Shown here: piece by piece, positions 2,278 to 37,854 of the stretch | Layout: each line of letters begins with the position of its first letter | Numbering within the stretch: the first letter of the stretch is position 1 | Assembly (NCBI GenBank): GCA_017555965.1 | Contig: JAFZFH010000010.1 | Location: 1 to 40,488 of the forward strand | Source of the DNA: Bacteroidales bacterium | Lineage (GTDB): Bacteria; Bacteroidota; Bacteroidia; Bacteroidales; UBA932 | Length of the DNA: 40,488 nt | Direction of reading: 5' to 3' | The notes under the pieces: model-generated | What the model was told of the DNA's origin: nothing | Database searches by the model: none | What the model saw: only the letters and a program-made list of their open reading frames with translations | Program-made: the position numbers and the translations under genes

Positions 2278-2697
2278 TTACTCCTCCAACCATTTATCGA
2301 CATACTTGATTGTTTCCTCACGGAAGGCCTGAAAGTCCGCCCATTCCTGGGTGTATTCAGCAATCTTCTCATCAGAGAGGATTCCACTCTCAAGACCGGC
2401 TTTATGCTGGAGCAACTGAATCTGATGCGTCTTTATCGCATCTTCCTCCGTCTGGAGGTATCTGCTCCTGATAATGCCGTTTATGAGTTTGTTTCTATCA
2501 AGTTCATCGCACTCGATGAGAGTACCTCCATCCGACATGCTCCCCGTATAAGAGAAGCCCGGAAGCGGAGTCGTAGCCTCCTCATTCGGATAATAATCCG
2601 CAGAGGATTCATTCAGATAAACTAAAAAATGCGCCCTGTCGTAACGACTTGGGCGCATCTGCTGCGGATATACCGCAGTGTAGGGTGATGTGTTCAT
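2278..2697 (-). CDS. Hypothetical protein next to the DGR reverse transcriptase
   Basis: A 139-residue protein whose start lies one base past the stop of the reverse transcriptase, so it is probably co-translated. The N-terminal half is rich in Tyr, Pro and Ser. The C-terminal half (from about residue 70) is charged and predicted helical, ending EYTQEWADFQAFREETIK. That tail resembles small tail-fibre assembly chaperones, which often follow fibre genes, but I do not recognise the family. It is not an obvious Avd, the basic four-helix DGR accessory protein, because it is acidic and not built of four even helices. A role in fibre assembly or in the DGR is inference from position. Confidence 0.5.
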   Translation of the reverse strand: MNTSPYTAVYPQQMRPSRYDRAHFLVYLNESSADYYPNEEATTPLPGFSYTGSMSDGGTLIECDELDRNKLINGIIRSRYLQTEEDAIKTHQIQLLQHKAGLESGILSDEKIAEYTQEWADFQAFREETIKYVDKWLEE

Positions 2698-2698
2698 T

Positions 2699-4297
2699 TT
2701 AAGTAAATTTATAAAACTTCTTGTTTCTTTTATTACTCTGAACGCTGATAACCGTCGGGGCAGGCAGATCCTCTCTTGTGAATTCGGTCTGTGCCTGCTC
2801 GATTAAGATCTTCGACCCGGTAAAAGAATAGTATTCCTTTCCCTTCTCGATAACCACTTCCCGGCCTTTGTCATCACGGTAGGTCAGTGTCTTTCCCTGC
2901 CATTCATAACGGATTGCAAGGCAAGGCTTCGGTTTAGTCTTTTCCTCATCATAGAACTCCTTGATGCTGTCCTGAACGACAAAGTCACGGAGTTCCATCA
3001 GATAGTCATCCTCCGCCCCTGAGTCTGGATAAAACAGGATCGCCTCGAAGCGTCTCTGCTGATCGTGGCTCATCTCAAATGGGCATTGGCTGCGCCGACG
3101 GTTAATCTTTGCGCCTAATCTTTCCTTTTTTGTCTCCATATTATATTTCCTTAACAGATTTATTGAATTTGCGTGTTTGATTGTGCCTATGAATGACGAA
3201 CAATGCTGCCTGACCTCTTTCTGGCTAAGCCCCAACTTAAATCCCTTCCGGATATGCCGGATTGCCTTGATCTTGTTTTTCTTTGCCACTCTGATATGGC
3301 CGTCGGCAAATATGCGATATCCTACAATAGGAAGACCATCTATCAGATTCCCGACTTGCCATTTAGGGTTCAAGGTCAGGCGAAGTTCTGATGACAGGTA
3401 CAATGCCATCCAGTCAAGCAAAATATGAAGGAATGTCTTATCCTCGTGAAGCACCACGAAGTTATCCATAAAACGGTAATAGTACTTGATTCCCTCACGA
3501 ACATAACCCTTGAACTTTTCGGAAAGGTATTGAACGCCTTTTGAAAGTTCTTTCAAATCGCTTTCATTCCTGGCACTGACGAACTTTTCAGATACATACT
3601 GACCAGCAAGGAAGTCCATCAAGACATCATTCTCGGCAATACCGAAGCACCTTCTTACATCGTGATCAAAATAGCACAGGGCCATATTCGCTATGACTGT
3701 TGAAATCTTCAGCCCGATAGGGACACCTGTATCTTCCCCGTGATCGTTTGTTCCCATCGGGGTACCGATACTGCTGTCAATCACCGTATCGAAGTGACGG
3801 AGCAGCCGAGGGTCCTTGATCTTCCTCCGGATATGAGCCTTCGGTATTCGAACAGGAATAGAAGCATACATTTTAGAGACATCACCGTTCAGAAAGTACT
3901 GAATCTTATCTCCGGCATTGAATATGTCATTACTGATTGTGTGGACCATAAGATGCTGGCCACGCCCGGGAATACTCGCATAGGAATGCCCGTCAAGGGC
4001 ACGGGCAAGTATTGGCTCTGACTTCAAGAGCATTGCCCAGTGGAAGACGTGATCCGGATATGGAAGCATCGAAAGAAAGCGGATCTTTCCTCTTTCGTTG
4101 ATGCTCTTGTAGGTATATTCGGATGTCTGATAGGATTCTGTGGAATAAAGATGAAGGAGGGTTTTAAGACTTTCAGGATCATTCCTGAAATCCTGTACCT
4201 CCTTCCTTCTTTTCTTCCGTCTGGAAGCGTAGAATTCCGCAGCTGCGAAATTCTCCTCTGTCTCTATCTCTTCAGATAGATGTCCGTACGCTTTCAT
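2699..4297 (-). CDS. DGR reverse transcriptase
   Basis: A 532-residue reverse transcriptase, long for a DGR enzyme (usually 300-400). Visible motifs: FLNGDVSKMYASI with the first catalytic Asp (D139), GVPIGLKIST (191-200) in place of the usual GxxxSQ segment, RFMDNFVVL with the second catalytic Asp (D278), and LPIVGYRIF (322-330). The catalytic YxDD box reads F-M-D-N, so the second Asp is Asn. About 75 residues are inserted between motifs 4 and 5, and some 120 residues follow the core. It should copy RNA of the template repeat (4476-4600) into cDNA with errors at adenines, which then replaces the variable repeat (4896-5020) in the upstream fibre gene. Gene order target-TR-RT is that of the Bordetella phage element. 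No Avd gene is visible. A group II intron or retron origin is disfavoured by the TR/VR pair. Confidence 0.93.
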   Translation of the reverse strand: MKAYGHLSEEIETEENFAAAEFYASRRKKRRKEVQDFRNDPESLKTLLHLYSTESYQTSEYTYKSINERGKIRFLSMLPYPDHVFHWAMLLKSEPILARALDGHSYASIPGRGQHLMVHTISNDIFNAGDKIQYFLNGDVSKMYASIPVRIPKAHIRRKIKDPRLLRHFDTVIDSSIGTPMGTNDHGEDTGVPIGLKISTVIANMALCYFDHDVRRCFGIAENDVLMDFLAGQYVSEKFVSARNESDLKELSKGVQYLSEKFKGYVREGIKYYYRFMDNFVVLHEDKTFLHILLDWMALYLSSELRLTLNPKWQVGNLIDGLPIVGYRIFADGHIRVAKKNKIKAIRHIRKGFKLGLSQKEVRQHCSSFIGTIKHANSINLLRKYNMETKKERLGAKINRRRSQCPFEMSHDQQRRFEAILFYPDSGAEDDYLMELRDFVVQDSIKEFYDEEKTKPKPCLAIRYEWQGKTLTYRDDKGREVVIEKGKEYYSFTGSKILIEQAQTEFTREDLPAPTVISVQSNKRNKKFYKFT

Positions 4298-4475
4298 TGT
4301 GTCTTACCTGTGTCAATGTGTCCTGGTGTAAATGTGTTCTGTCTGCTTTCTTTTCTTACAAGCGTCGTCGAATCAGTCTCCTGACCTACCGAAACCCGTT
4401 TGACCGTCTATTTTCCAGCGTGAGCCGAGGCCTGTCCTTAAACGCAGCTGCCGAGCAAACATCAACAGCCACAAA

Positions 4476-4600
4476 GTAGTGGGACGACGACAGGTTCGCA
4501 TTGGCATTCGAGGGGGCATTGTTACCATTGAAGTACGCCAAGCCATCGATGTCACCATTGTTAGCATTGCCAGCCCCGAGAGGGGCACGGGAACCGGAAG
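4476..4600 (-). repeat. DGR template repeat (TR)
   Basis: This 125-bp segment is the non-coding donor copy of the variable repeat 420 bp away. Read on the minus strand, it could encode the VR region with Asn at most variable positions (GAGNANNGDIDG and similar). AAY codons are the typical DGR design because mutating both adenines avoids stop codons. It holds 24 adenines in the coding sense and 15 of them differ in VR. None of the other 101 bases differs. Identity ends sharply at both edges. It lies in the 550-bp gap between the target gene and the reverse transcriptase, where no protein gene is needed. Confidence 0.96.
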
Positions 4601-4639
4601 ACCTACCGCCCGAAAGGACATGCCCACCATAAGGTGATG

Positions 4640-4647
4640 CAAAGGTA
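4640..4647 (-). promoter_or_regulatory. Candidate promoter for TR and reverse transcriptase
   Basis: On the minus strand TACCTTTG followed by C matches the Bacteroidetes -7 box. Transcription would begin near 4633, about 33 bases before TR, and run through TR into the reverse transcriptase. The -33 box is poor. It would let the template RNA be made separately from the tail operon. Confidence 0.45.
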
Positions 4648-4675
4648 GTAAAAATCCGTTTCAATAAACCGCCTC

Positions 4676-4699
4676 CGGCGGTATTCATAAACACCGCCG
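4676..4699 (-). terminator. GC-rich hairpin between target gene and TR
   Basis: CGGCGGT (4676-4682) and ACCGCCG (4693-4699) form a 7-bp stem with a 10-base loop. The next T-rich stretch on the minus strand is some 20 bases on, so termination is possible but not clear. It may separate the tail transcript from the TR transcript. Confidence 0.4.
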
Positions 4700-4754
4700 A
4701 TGACAGCCTTTCATAATATGAAGCACAGTATTTTCAAAGAACTTGTTTTGTTTG

Positions 4755-4796
4755 GTGCACTGCGTGCACGGGTTCTTGCTCAGCCTCTACGAGGCT
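4755..4796 (-). repeat. Twin hairpins downstream of VR
   Basis: Two compact inverted repeats follow the target gene's stop: AGCCTC-TAC-GAGGCT (4782-4796) and GTGCAC-TGC-GTGCAC (4755-4769), each a perfect 6-bp stem with a 3-base loop. In the Bordetella phage DGR a hairpin or cruciform shortly after VR helps mark the recipient site. These lie 100-140 bp past VR, further than that example, so the role is inferred. Confidence 0.4.
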
Positions 4797-4847
4797 TGCG
4801 CCGGGTTGCTTGGCTTGCCTGCCGTCCCTCTCAACCTCATCACGCTA

Positions 4848-6269
4848 TCAGGCAGCATAGACCTGCGGAACCGGGTTGAAATCGCCATCGACTTCGCAGA
4901 GGGACGACGACAGGTACGCATTGGCAGTCGAGGGGGCATAGCCACCATAGAAGAACGCCAAGCCAACGACGTCACCATGGCTAGCAAAGCCAGCCCCGAG
5001 AGGGGCACGGGAACCGGAAGTGGCGGTATCACCATAAGCACCATCACAGTAATATGTAGAGGATGTTGCGCCCGTCGATGACGGCATTCCGGCAAGTCCG
5101 TTAAAATTGAGCGTCTTCGAGTACTCCCAATTTCCGGCATTGCCTGGCAGCCAATCTCCCACATGGAGCATCTCGGAAGTCTTGCTGTAATCCCAAGTGG
5201 TAAGCGATGACTTTGCCACAAAGAATCTGTACGACGCATCTGATTGCTTGACTCCGACAATGCGATTCTTTCCGTGCCACAGATGGCCGTATGGGTTCTT
5301 GAGACCAAAGAACACCGGTACCGGAGCATTGTAAACGGTTGTGCCGGATGCATTCTTTACAGGATAATACGAGATACCTACACCGTCTGCAAGTTCGACT
5401 CCGGCAGAAGTAGGGATGACAGGATAATAATTGTTGTAAGTATCCCAGCTTGGCATTCCCGACACTCCGCTTCCGAGACCGCCCTGATATAGACCGTTAG
5501 CATCCTTGTTTGCATTGTAGGAAGCCTGGCAGTTCTTGGTGCCCATAATCACATAGAACAGTGTCGCTATGACGGTATCAATCCAGTACCAACCTGCACC
5601 CCAGCCGGAACCTCTATTCGCACCTTTCTGCTCAAAAGTAGCAGTTCCCAACACGGTAGCAGGATAGCCGAGCATCGAAAGGTTGTCTGCTGAAGCATTA
5701 CCCGACGCCAAGGCTGAACCGCCACCACCACGATACTGTGCATCAGTACTGATCAAAGAGCAGAGCTTATCATTAGTCCTATCCATCACGCCTGCATGGA
5801 ATGCTGAGATAGAAGCGACAGGAACCTTATAGCACTCCTTACCCGGGATCGGCTTGAGACTGATACCCATATACTGATATTCGCCCTCAATCCAGTAGGC
5901 AATATAAAACGGAGTACGCCATCCCCACATATACTGGCCCATTGATCCGTCCAGCTTGGCAGTCTCGCCTGTGGCCAGTTTGTAATGGTTAGTAGGGTCC
6001 AGTTTCTTTCTTGCGTGAGCATCATCCACCAGGTAGCAGCCCAAGCCCAAGAGGTTAGGAAGGTTCCTCAAGTAATCAAGATTGCCGACAGCCTCACCTG
6101 TTGGGGAACTGCCGTCAAGCAGCCAACGGCGACAGGCATAGCCATTGCCGTGTATCAGACTGGCAGGGAAGAATCCGTACTTGCTTCCGGAGGTCTTCTT
6201 GCCGAATACCACATCCTCATTGTCGATGGATGTGAAATGCTCGTAAGAGCCGAGTTTTTTCTTTGCCAT
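4848..6269 (-). CDS. DGR-diversified receptor-binding (tail tip) protein
   Basis: A 473-residue protein whose C-terminus has the look of a C-type-lectin or formylglycine-generating-enzyme-like fold, the usual scaffold for DGR variation: WDYSKTSEMLHVGDWLPG, WEYSKTLNFNGLAGMPSS, then SGSRAPLGAG with variable positions after it. The variable repeat covers about residues 417-458, and the last 15 residues (to VPQVYAA) lie outside it. Such proteins sit at the tail tip and bind host surface receptors. Compared with TR, Asn-encoding sites have become Phe, Ser, His, Tyr, Gly and Thr. The N-terminal 400 residues are rich in Gly, Tyr and Trp and are not otherwise recognised. It is the last structural gene of the leftward tail operon, four bases past the preceding fibre gene. 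Confidence 0.9.
   Translation of the reverse strand: MAKKKLGSYEHFTSIDNEDVVFGKKTSGSKYGFFPASLIHGNGYACRRWLLDGSSPTGEAVGNLDYLRNLPNLLGLGCYLVDDAHARKKLDPTNHYKLATGETAKLDGSMGQYMWGWRTPFYIAYWIEGEYQYMGISLKPIPGKECYKVPVASISAFHAGVMDRTNDKLCSLISTDAQYRGGGGSALASGNASADNLSMLGYPATVLGTATFEQKGANRGSGWGAGWYWIDTVIATLFYVIMGTKNCQASYNANKDANGLYQGGLGSGVSGMPSWDTYNNYYPVIPTSAGVELADGVGISYYPVKNASGTTVYNAPVPVFFGLKNPYGHLWHGKNRIVGVKQSDASYRFFVAKSSLTTWDYSKTSEMLHVGDWLPGNAGNWEYSKTLNFNGLAGMPSSTGATSSTYYCDGAYGDTATSGSRAPLGAGFASHGDVVGLAFFYGGYAPSTANAYLSSSLCEVDGDFNPVPQVYAA
4896..5020 (-). repeat. DGR variable repeat (VR)
   Basis: This is the recipient copy of TR, inside the 3' part of the target gene. The 15 differences from TR fall at TR positions 4477, 4480, 4496, 4507, 4520, 4522, 4523, 4529, 4534, 4546, 4550, 4559, 4561, 4567 and 4568, and every one is A in the coding sense of TR. 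The GC-rich stretch at its 3' coding end (CCTGTCGTCGTCCC) is identical in both copies and is the likely initiation-of-homing region. Confidence 0.96.
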
Positions 6270-37787: not shown

Positions 37788-37854
37788 TGGTCCCGGAGAG
37801 GGATTCGAACCCCCGTCTTCTCGTCAGACATTCTACCGTTGAACTATCCGAGAC
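37788..37854 (-). ncRNA. tRNA-like element 1 before the transposase
   Basis: Read on the minus strand: acceptor TCTCGGA (37853-37847) pairs with TCCGGGA (37797-37791) and is followed by CCA. A normal D-arm, GTTC-AACGGTA-GAAT (37844-37830), an anticodon-like arm GTCT-GACGAGA-AGAC (37829-37815) and a canonical T-arm, GGGGG-TTCGAAT-CCCTC (37814-37798) follow. The anticodon stem has only 4 bp, the loop lacks U33, and no variable region exists, so it should not decode. It fills the gap between the 77-residue gene and the transposase. RNase P/Z cutting, translation control or a relic of a tRNA are possible. In the unpaired or unprocessed form it would be part of the transposase leader. Confidence 0.7.

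What the first reader, a model, noticed from the sequence alone, without database searches (positions are those of the whole stretch)
4476..5020. Diversity-generating retroelement with strictly adenine-directed variation
TR and VR are 125 bp each and differ at 15 positions. All 15 are adenine in the coding sense of TR, and the other 101 non-adenine positions are identical. A reverse transcriptase follows and the variable codons lie in the C-terminus of a fibre-like protein. This gives strong evidence of recent retrohoming, with the receptor-binding tip as the target.
Basis: partly seen in the sequence, partly recalled or inferred. Interest (0 to 1): 0.8.

Follow-up and report, generated by a model that had tools for sequence, protein, structure and literature searches.

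The report
Active phage diversifier with altered catalytic motif
This virus of gut bacteria carries a diversity-generating retroelement that has kept rewriting the end of a tail protein, and it belongs to a group whose reverse transcriptase has an asparagine where its relatives have the second catalytic aspartate.

Summary
It is a DGR of a Mu-like Bacteroidales phage organised like hankyphage.

Correction: the last two differences (4480, 4477) are the same A>T and A>G in 8 of 8 loci (window included), so they are fixed IMH/IMH* differences; 13, not 15, reflect mutagenesis.

Retrohoming is supported by comparison: a 90%-identical cassette in another genome of the genus (L089) differs at 5 TR positions, none adenine, all 5 mirrored in its own VR; the VRs differ at 15 further positions, all TR adenines.

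The unexpected part is the RT. It groups with DGR RTs, but 14 of 14 clade sequences covering the site read F[MA]DN instead of YxDD, and 9 of 9 of the window's subclade read IGLKIST instead of IGxxxSQ. 44 distinct other RTs gathered here all read DD and SQ. The RT core has dN/dS 0.018; A-only TR/VR pairs occur in 11 of 15 clade loci. No bAvd match in the phage contig, but also none in hankyphage. New variant of a known kind.

The parts
4848..6269 (-). target gene: tail protein, 473 aa, VR in its C-terminus
4896..5020 (-). variable repeat (VR), 125 nt
4893..4914 (-). IMH at the 3' end of VR (CCTGTCGTCGTCCCTCTGCGAA)
   Evidence: end CTCTGCGA in VR of 8 of 8 subclade loci with both repeats, window included, and in 3 of 3 such loci of the sister subclade; the name IMH is by analogy with BPP-1
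4476..4600 (-). template repeat (TR), 125 nt, 24 A
4476..4494 (-). IMH* at the 3' end of TR, with the two fixed A differences at 4480 and 4477
4782..4796 (-). first hairpin AGCCTC-GTA-GAGGCT about 99 nt after VR; stem kept by compensatory changes (candidate cruciform or RNA hairpin)
   Evidence: 40 of 40 cells with letters paired in 7 sequences, 5 of 6 pairs with both-side changes
4755..4769 (-). second hairpin GTGCAC-GCA-GTGCAC about 126 nt after VR
   Evidence: a second stem in 5 of 7 subclade loci scanned (window, L040, L042, L027, L028; not L043, L029)
4663..4682 (-). terminator-like hairpin ACCGCC-GGA-GGCGGT followed by TTATT, between tail gene and candidate TR promoter
   Evidence: stem invariant in 7 of 7 aligned loci, six or more T in 6 of 7, the window being the exception; not over the scan's threshold in the window
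4640..4647 (-). candidate Bacteroidales -7 element TACCTTTG (TAnnTTTG) for the TR RNA
   Evidence: same place in 7 of 7; the motif alone is no more frequent in the window than chance (14 versus 17.6); consensus recalled
4340..4461 (-). structured RNA spacer between TR and RT, closed by TGTTTGC/GCAGACA
   Evidence: 27 pairs, 98.1% of cells paired, 7 pairs with both-side changes (shuffled mean 3.1); the closing helix itself hardly varies
2699..4297 (-). DGR reverse transcriptase, 532 aa, motif 4 IGLKIST, motif C FMDN (N279), beta-rich C-terminal extension about 405-532
2278..2697 (-). 139-aa ORF right after RT, also present in L027, L028, L029 and L089; no significant Pfam or PHROG match

Best explanation
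A working diversity-generating retroelement in a Mu-like (transposable) phage of Bacteroidales. A TR RNA starts at its own promoter behind the tail gene's terminator, runs through TR and a folded spacer into the RT gene, and is copied by the RT with random insertion opposite adenines. The cDNA replaces the VR of the tail gene, anchored at the IMH, which stays distinct from IMH*. The RT belongs to a monophyletic clade in which the second catalytic aspartate of motif C is asparagine (F[MA]DN), in the window's subclade combined with ST for SQ in motif 4; adenine-specific mutagenic retrohoming nevertheless continued. Shown by sequence: A-only pattern, VR rewriting from its own TR after divergence, clade-wide motif change, purifying selection, covariation in the spacer. 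Inferred: that this RT (not another) makes the cDNA, promoter and terminator use, receptor binding by the tail protein, and that no Avd is needed.
For: A-only mismatches: over 10 clade loci 140 of 239 TR A's and 1 of 1010 non-A's differ (unit ends set where the match stops); L089 adds 14 of 14 at A. Window versus L089: 5 of 5 non-A TR differences mirrored in the own VR, 15 further VR differences all at TR A's, 0 differences at the 24 TR A's. In 28 of 28 pairs among 8 subclade loci every non-A TR difference is mirrored in VR (the IMH block, the first 3 bases and the 0-2 positions per pair where one TR has A were set aside). RT nearest to DGR RTs: PDB sequence match 8ub7 (BPP-1 DGR RT) E 1.1e-35, next a group II intron RT 2.2e-12; Foldseek ranks DGR RTs first and so does VIA-align, tied with a group II-like RT (11.2 versus 10.9). 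In a tree of 30 RTs without an outgroup the 12 FxDN rows form one clade, 100/99. Motif C DN in 14 of 14 clade sequences covering it, DD in 44 of 44 distinct others. RT core dN/dS 0.018, C-terminal part 0.085 with saturated dS. Spacer covariation.
Against: No reads or experiment: activity is inferred from assemblies. 3 of 15 clade loci have a frameshifted RT (L028, L035, L046), L046 with one repeat copy left, so decay occurs. The RT model is moderate (mean pLDDT 67.5, pTM 0.38). The assembly holds two further A-biased repeat pairs, one beside a bAvd-like ORF and a YVDD RT, so action of another RT in trans is not excluded. Absence of Avd rests on one HMM that also finds nothing in hankyphage, LMMB, cr55 and Perkons. 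In the spacer the number of pair types is not unusual (86 of 500 shuffles as high).
Confidence: 0.88

Rival explanations
1. The FxDN RT is catalytically dead or only structural; cDNA for homing is made in trans by another DGR RT of the host or a co-resident phage.
For: Second catalytic Asp is replaced; the same assembly holds two other A-biased repeat pairs, one next to a YVDD RT and a bAvd-like ORF.
Against: DN in 14 of 14 members that cover the site, from several Bacteroidales families; RT core dN/dS 0.018; cassette order and spacer conserved; A-only TR/VR in 11 of 15 clade loci, and in 3 of the 4 sister-subclade loci with tail gene and RT.
Confidence: 0.08
2. Compatible with the best explanation but duller: an ordinary DGR in which the motif change is functionally neutral; DN still binds metal well enough and nothing in mechanism or fidelity differs.
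For: Changed A's (117 of 212 outside IMH, with L045 cut short) and 1 of 941 other positions look like any DGR. Phenylalanine for tyrosine alone is common, 14% of 155 DGR RTs (PMC3521204, passages).
Against: Both Asp were 100% conserved in those 155 and in 44 of 44 distinct others here; the change is fixed across one old clade.
Confidence: 0.4
3. A relic: homing happened in the past and the window's element is now inactive.
For: Related loci show decay (L028, L035, L046).
Against: The window RT is an intact ORF and constrained; 5 of 5 TR changes since the split from L089 are mirrored in VR.
Confidence: 0.06

Closest known systems
Hankyphage DGR (Bacteroides phage p00, BK010646)
   Same: Mu-like phage with the same kind of gene order at that end: target with 3' VR, TR, RT, small ORFs, thymidylate synthase, N6 DNA methyltransferase; A-only TR/VR; RT with a C-terminal extension that ends similarly (KYIFT versus FYKFT; homology not tested); its RT is the weakly supported sister of the FxDN clade (87/73).
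   Different: RT reads YCDD and IGLRSSQ; target ORF about 2245 codons; no DNA match of the window cassette in the phage collection.
BPP-1 DGR (Bordetella phage, NC_005357)
   Same: tail target with 3' VR, TR then RT; IMH/IMH* and a folded spacer RNA (PMC12875486, passages).
   Different: BPP-1 has avd (bAvd 7.3e-36), YMDD and SQ; its hairpin/cruciform lies within about 35 bp after VR (PMC3240598, passages); here the stems lie about 99 and 126 nt away.
crAss-like phage DGRs (LMMB, cr50_1, cr55_1; crAssE-Sib)
   Same: related tail protein (26-31% identity for LMMB, cr55_1, cr50_1) and RT (28-29%).
   Different: these three read xDD and SQ. For crAssE-Sib the abstract reports GxxxSP instead of GxxxSQ, a later passage states it the other way round; YxDD is kept (PMC11054128, passages).
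Prophage-like DGR in Bacteroides cellulosilyticus DSM 14838 (L048)
   Same: member of the same FxDN clade in a named isolate: FADN, A-only TR/VR with 15 of 24 A changed, tail protein 47% identical.
   Different: sister subclade: motif 4 is LGIKISQ.

Membership tests
Diversity-generating retroelement | TR/VR pair with mismatches confined to TR adenines | tested here: met
   15 of 15 at A, 0 of 101 non-A
Diversity-generating retroelement | RT falls with DGR RTs | tested here: met
   best PDB sequence match is the BPP-1 DGR RT; FxDN clade lies next to hankyphage RT, weak support, in a tree without an outgroup
Diversity-generating retroelement | VR in the 3' end of a target gene, TR outside it | tested here: met
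Diversity-generating retroelement | VR rewritten from TR (retrohoming) | tested here: met
   by comparison only: 5 of 5 TR changes mirrored; not by experiment
Diversity-generating retroelement | IMH at VR end distinct from IMH* | tested here: met
   CTCTGCGA versus CACTACTT in 8 of 8 loci, window included
DGR, usual but not defining features | RT motif C YxDD with both aspartates | tested here: not met
   FMDN in the window; DN in 14 of 14 clade sequences covering it
DGR, usual but not defining features | RT motif 4 [IVL]GxxxSQ (90% of 155 in PMC3521204) | tested here: not met
   IGLKIST; ST in 9 of 9 of the subclade, SQ in 4 of 4 of the sister subclade, AQ in L035
DGR, usual but not defining features | Avd accessory gene (62% of DGR RTs in complete genomes co-occur with an Avd-like domain, PMC8934634) | tested here: inconclusive
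   no PF22296 match in the window contig or in 3 IMG/VR relatives; BPP-1 control found at 2.2e-37; but hankyphage, LMMB, cr55 and Perkons gave none either
DGR, usual but not defining features | hairpin/cruciform directly after VR | tested here: inconclusive
   none near VR in the window; covarying stem about 99 nt downstream
DGR, usual but not defining features | target with C-type lectin fold | tested here: inconclusive
Diversity-generating retroelement | RT-dependent mutagenic cDNA synthesis | not testable with these tools
   needs an experiment

The most novel reading that the evidence does not exclude
A distinct DGR lineage of Bacteroidales phages in which the RT carries out adenine-selective mutagenic reverse transcription with asparagine in place of the second catalytic aspartate, in one branch also without the SQ motif, and without Avd, whose role is taken over by the RT's C-terminal beta-rich extension; target recognition uses stems about 100 bp from the IMH. 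This would show that neither the SQ dipeptide nor the second aspartate is needed for adenine-specific infidelity.
Probability: 0.45. Interest if true: 0.72.

Novelty: new variant of a known kind. Interest (0 to 1): 0.55.

Why it matters
The SQ motif has been proposed to underlie adenine-specific mutagenesis, and both motif C aspartates were reported as 100% conserved in 155 DGR RTs (PMC3521204, passages). A natural clade that lacks the second aspartate and, in one branch, the SQ as well, while its VRs keep being rewritten only at adenines, offers a direct test of what makes a DGR RT err at adenine. The clade includes a named isolate (Bacteroides cellulosilyticus DSM 14838), so it can be taken to the bench.

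Tried and rejected
Exact 27-nt TR pattern in viral contigs: 0 hits. RT as single-sequence query in viral contigs: 15 pattern matches, no relative, although relatives exist there (found through the tail protein). Distant blastn of the cassette in phage records: none. Tail profile against PDB sequences: none. Pfam for the RT C-terminal extension and ORF 2278-2697: nothing significant; VIA-align rows cover RT residues 1-329 only, so the fold of the extension is undecided. Terminator scan of the window: none over threshold. TAnnTTTG alone not enriched. In an order-level sample of 393 genomes only the window's own RT scored high (898 bits; next 144); in a genus sample 4 of 300 genomes, the window's included, hold the clade. 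L087 and L088 are 100% identical to L042 and L043 and were dropped from all counts. A first motif regex picked wrong sites and was replaced by alignment. Of 48 other RT sequences one (L010) does not cover the motifs and three are partial copies of others, leaving 44 distinct; their own TR/VR were not checked. In one search the L045 unit was cut short by an early CTCTG. The repeat finder looks only for stretches whose mismatches are all at A, so it cannot itself measure bias. Paper searches: FMDN, FADN, YMDN, YADN or YxDN with DGR, 0 papers; asparagine or catalytic aspartate with DGR, 15 of 173 listed, none on this by title or abstract; YXDD and active-site terms with DGR, 10 listed. Roux 2021 (PMC8144416) main text holds 'motif', 'catalytic' and 'active site' 0 times. 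No paper was read whole: passages or listings only.

Full report
Observation. On the minus strand TR is 4476-4600 and VR 4896-5020; 15 of 125 positions differ, all at TR adenines (8 A>T, 5 A>G, 2 A>C), with 24 adenines and 101 identical non-adenines. VR lies in the 3' end of ORF 4848-6269(-), a tail protein by PHROGs; TR follows, then the RT ORF 2699-4297(-). The window is one whole 40,488-base contig of a 2.56-Mb assembly and carries Mu-like genes: transposase, transposition protein, Mu portal, a weak Mu F match. Thymidylate synthase and N6 methyltransferase lie beyond the RT as in hankyphage.

Relatives. The tail protein found six close relatives in viral contigs (61-67% identity) and one remote one. 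Three of the six hold the whole cassette; of the others two end inside VR and one 14 nt after it. A genus search gave L089 in another genome, 90.5% identical to the window over 3.8 kb. With the phage contig L035 the clade has 15 loci: window, L027-L029, L035, L040-L048, L089. A-only TR/VR pairs were found in 11 of 15. The four without: L041 starts in TR, L047 starts inside the RT, L035 has its RT near the contig start, and L046 holds one repeat copy and a frameshifted RT.

Adenine bias and IMH. Over ten loci 140 of 239 TR adenines and 1 of 1010 other positions differ, the one near the repeat's edge in L027. Unit ends were set where the match stops, so this describes the inside of the repeats. 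The final two A differences are shared by 8 of 8 subclade loci, window included (TR CACTACTT, VR CTCTGCGA), and VR of the sister subclade also ends CTCTGCGA in 3 of 3. They are therefore fixed, as IMH and IMH* are distinct in other DGRs. Without them the window has 13 of 22 A changed. No TR adenine is at a third codon position.

Retrohoming. Window versus L089: tail gene before VR 90.0% identical, RT 88.0%, TR 96.0%, VR 84.0%. The TRs differ at five positions, none an adenine; each of the five is found in the VR of the same genome. The VRs differ at those five and at 15 TR-adenine positions. Mirroring holds in 28 of 28 pairs among eight loci, where no shared non-A position differs between VRs. 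The VR has thus been rewritten from TR in each lineage since they split. Gene conversion without a retroelement would not give the A-only differences (inference).

Other anatomy. Between TR and RT a structure of 27 pairs is kept in eight sequences (98.1% of cells paired; 7 pairs with both-side changes, shuffled mean 3.1, 1 of 500 shuffles as high; pair types not unusual). In BPP-1 the spacer recruits the RT (PMC12875486, passages). Upstream of TR a hairpin followed by T's and a TAnnTTTG element are in the same place in 7 of 7, but neither is significant in the window alone. About 99 nt after VR a stem is kept by compensatory changes (40 of 40 cells, 5 of 6 pairs changed on both sides), with a second stem behind it in 5 of 7 loci scanned. 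BPP-1's cruciform is much nearer to VR; whether these stems do the same is open. No bAvd match was found in the window contig or in three IMG/VR relatives, but the same HMM finds nothing in hankyphage and three other DGR phages while it finds BPP-1's, so a divergent Avd is not excluded; a small ORF next to the hankyphage RT was likened to Avd by isoelectric point and molecular weight (PMC6199706, passages).

Verdict. The reported finding is right and of a known kind. What raises it is the clade-wide change of two hallmark RT motifs together with comparative evidence that mutagenic retrohoming went on. Whether the change alters chemistry is not known.

Noticed in passing
G000:C9:18000-34000 (L093) and G000:C133:1-6000 (L094): Two further A-biased repeat pairs in the same assembly: C9, 184 nt with 42 A and 18 mismatches at A, on a contig with a bAvd-like ORF (30.5 bits, under cut-off) and a YVDD RT with IGKVTNQ; C133, 82 nt with 18 A and 13 mismatches at A, on a contig with an RT fragment.
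   Followed up: partly
window 4299-4322 (-) and the same place in relatives: GACAC occurs one to five times in the 75 nt before the RT start in 12 of 13 clade loci examined, three times in the window; purpose unknown.
   Followed up: partly
window 2699-3097 (-), RT C-terminal extension: The extension differs far more between window and L089 (70% aa) than the RT core (98.7%), as if exchanged by recombination; its last residues KKFYKFT are invariant in 11 of 11 rows of A2.
   Followed up: partly
L046 7680-9640, L028 7958-9558, L035 368-1907: Frameshifted RTs in three clade loci; in L046 only one repeat copy is seen, as if TR and VR had recombined.
   Followed up: partly
L030, L031, L032 ends: Three of six close IMG/VR relatives end inside VR or 14 nt after it, as expected if assembly breaks at a hypervariable repeat.
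   Followed up: partly
window 37790-37853 (-): A tRNA-like gene (Rfam 45.7 bits) directly beside the Mu A-like transposase gene.
   Followed up: no
L044, end of VR: In one sister-subclade locus the IMH itself can form an 8-bp stem, CCTCTGCG-AATT-CGCAGAGG, unlike the distal stems of the others.
   Followed up: no
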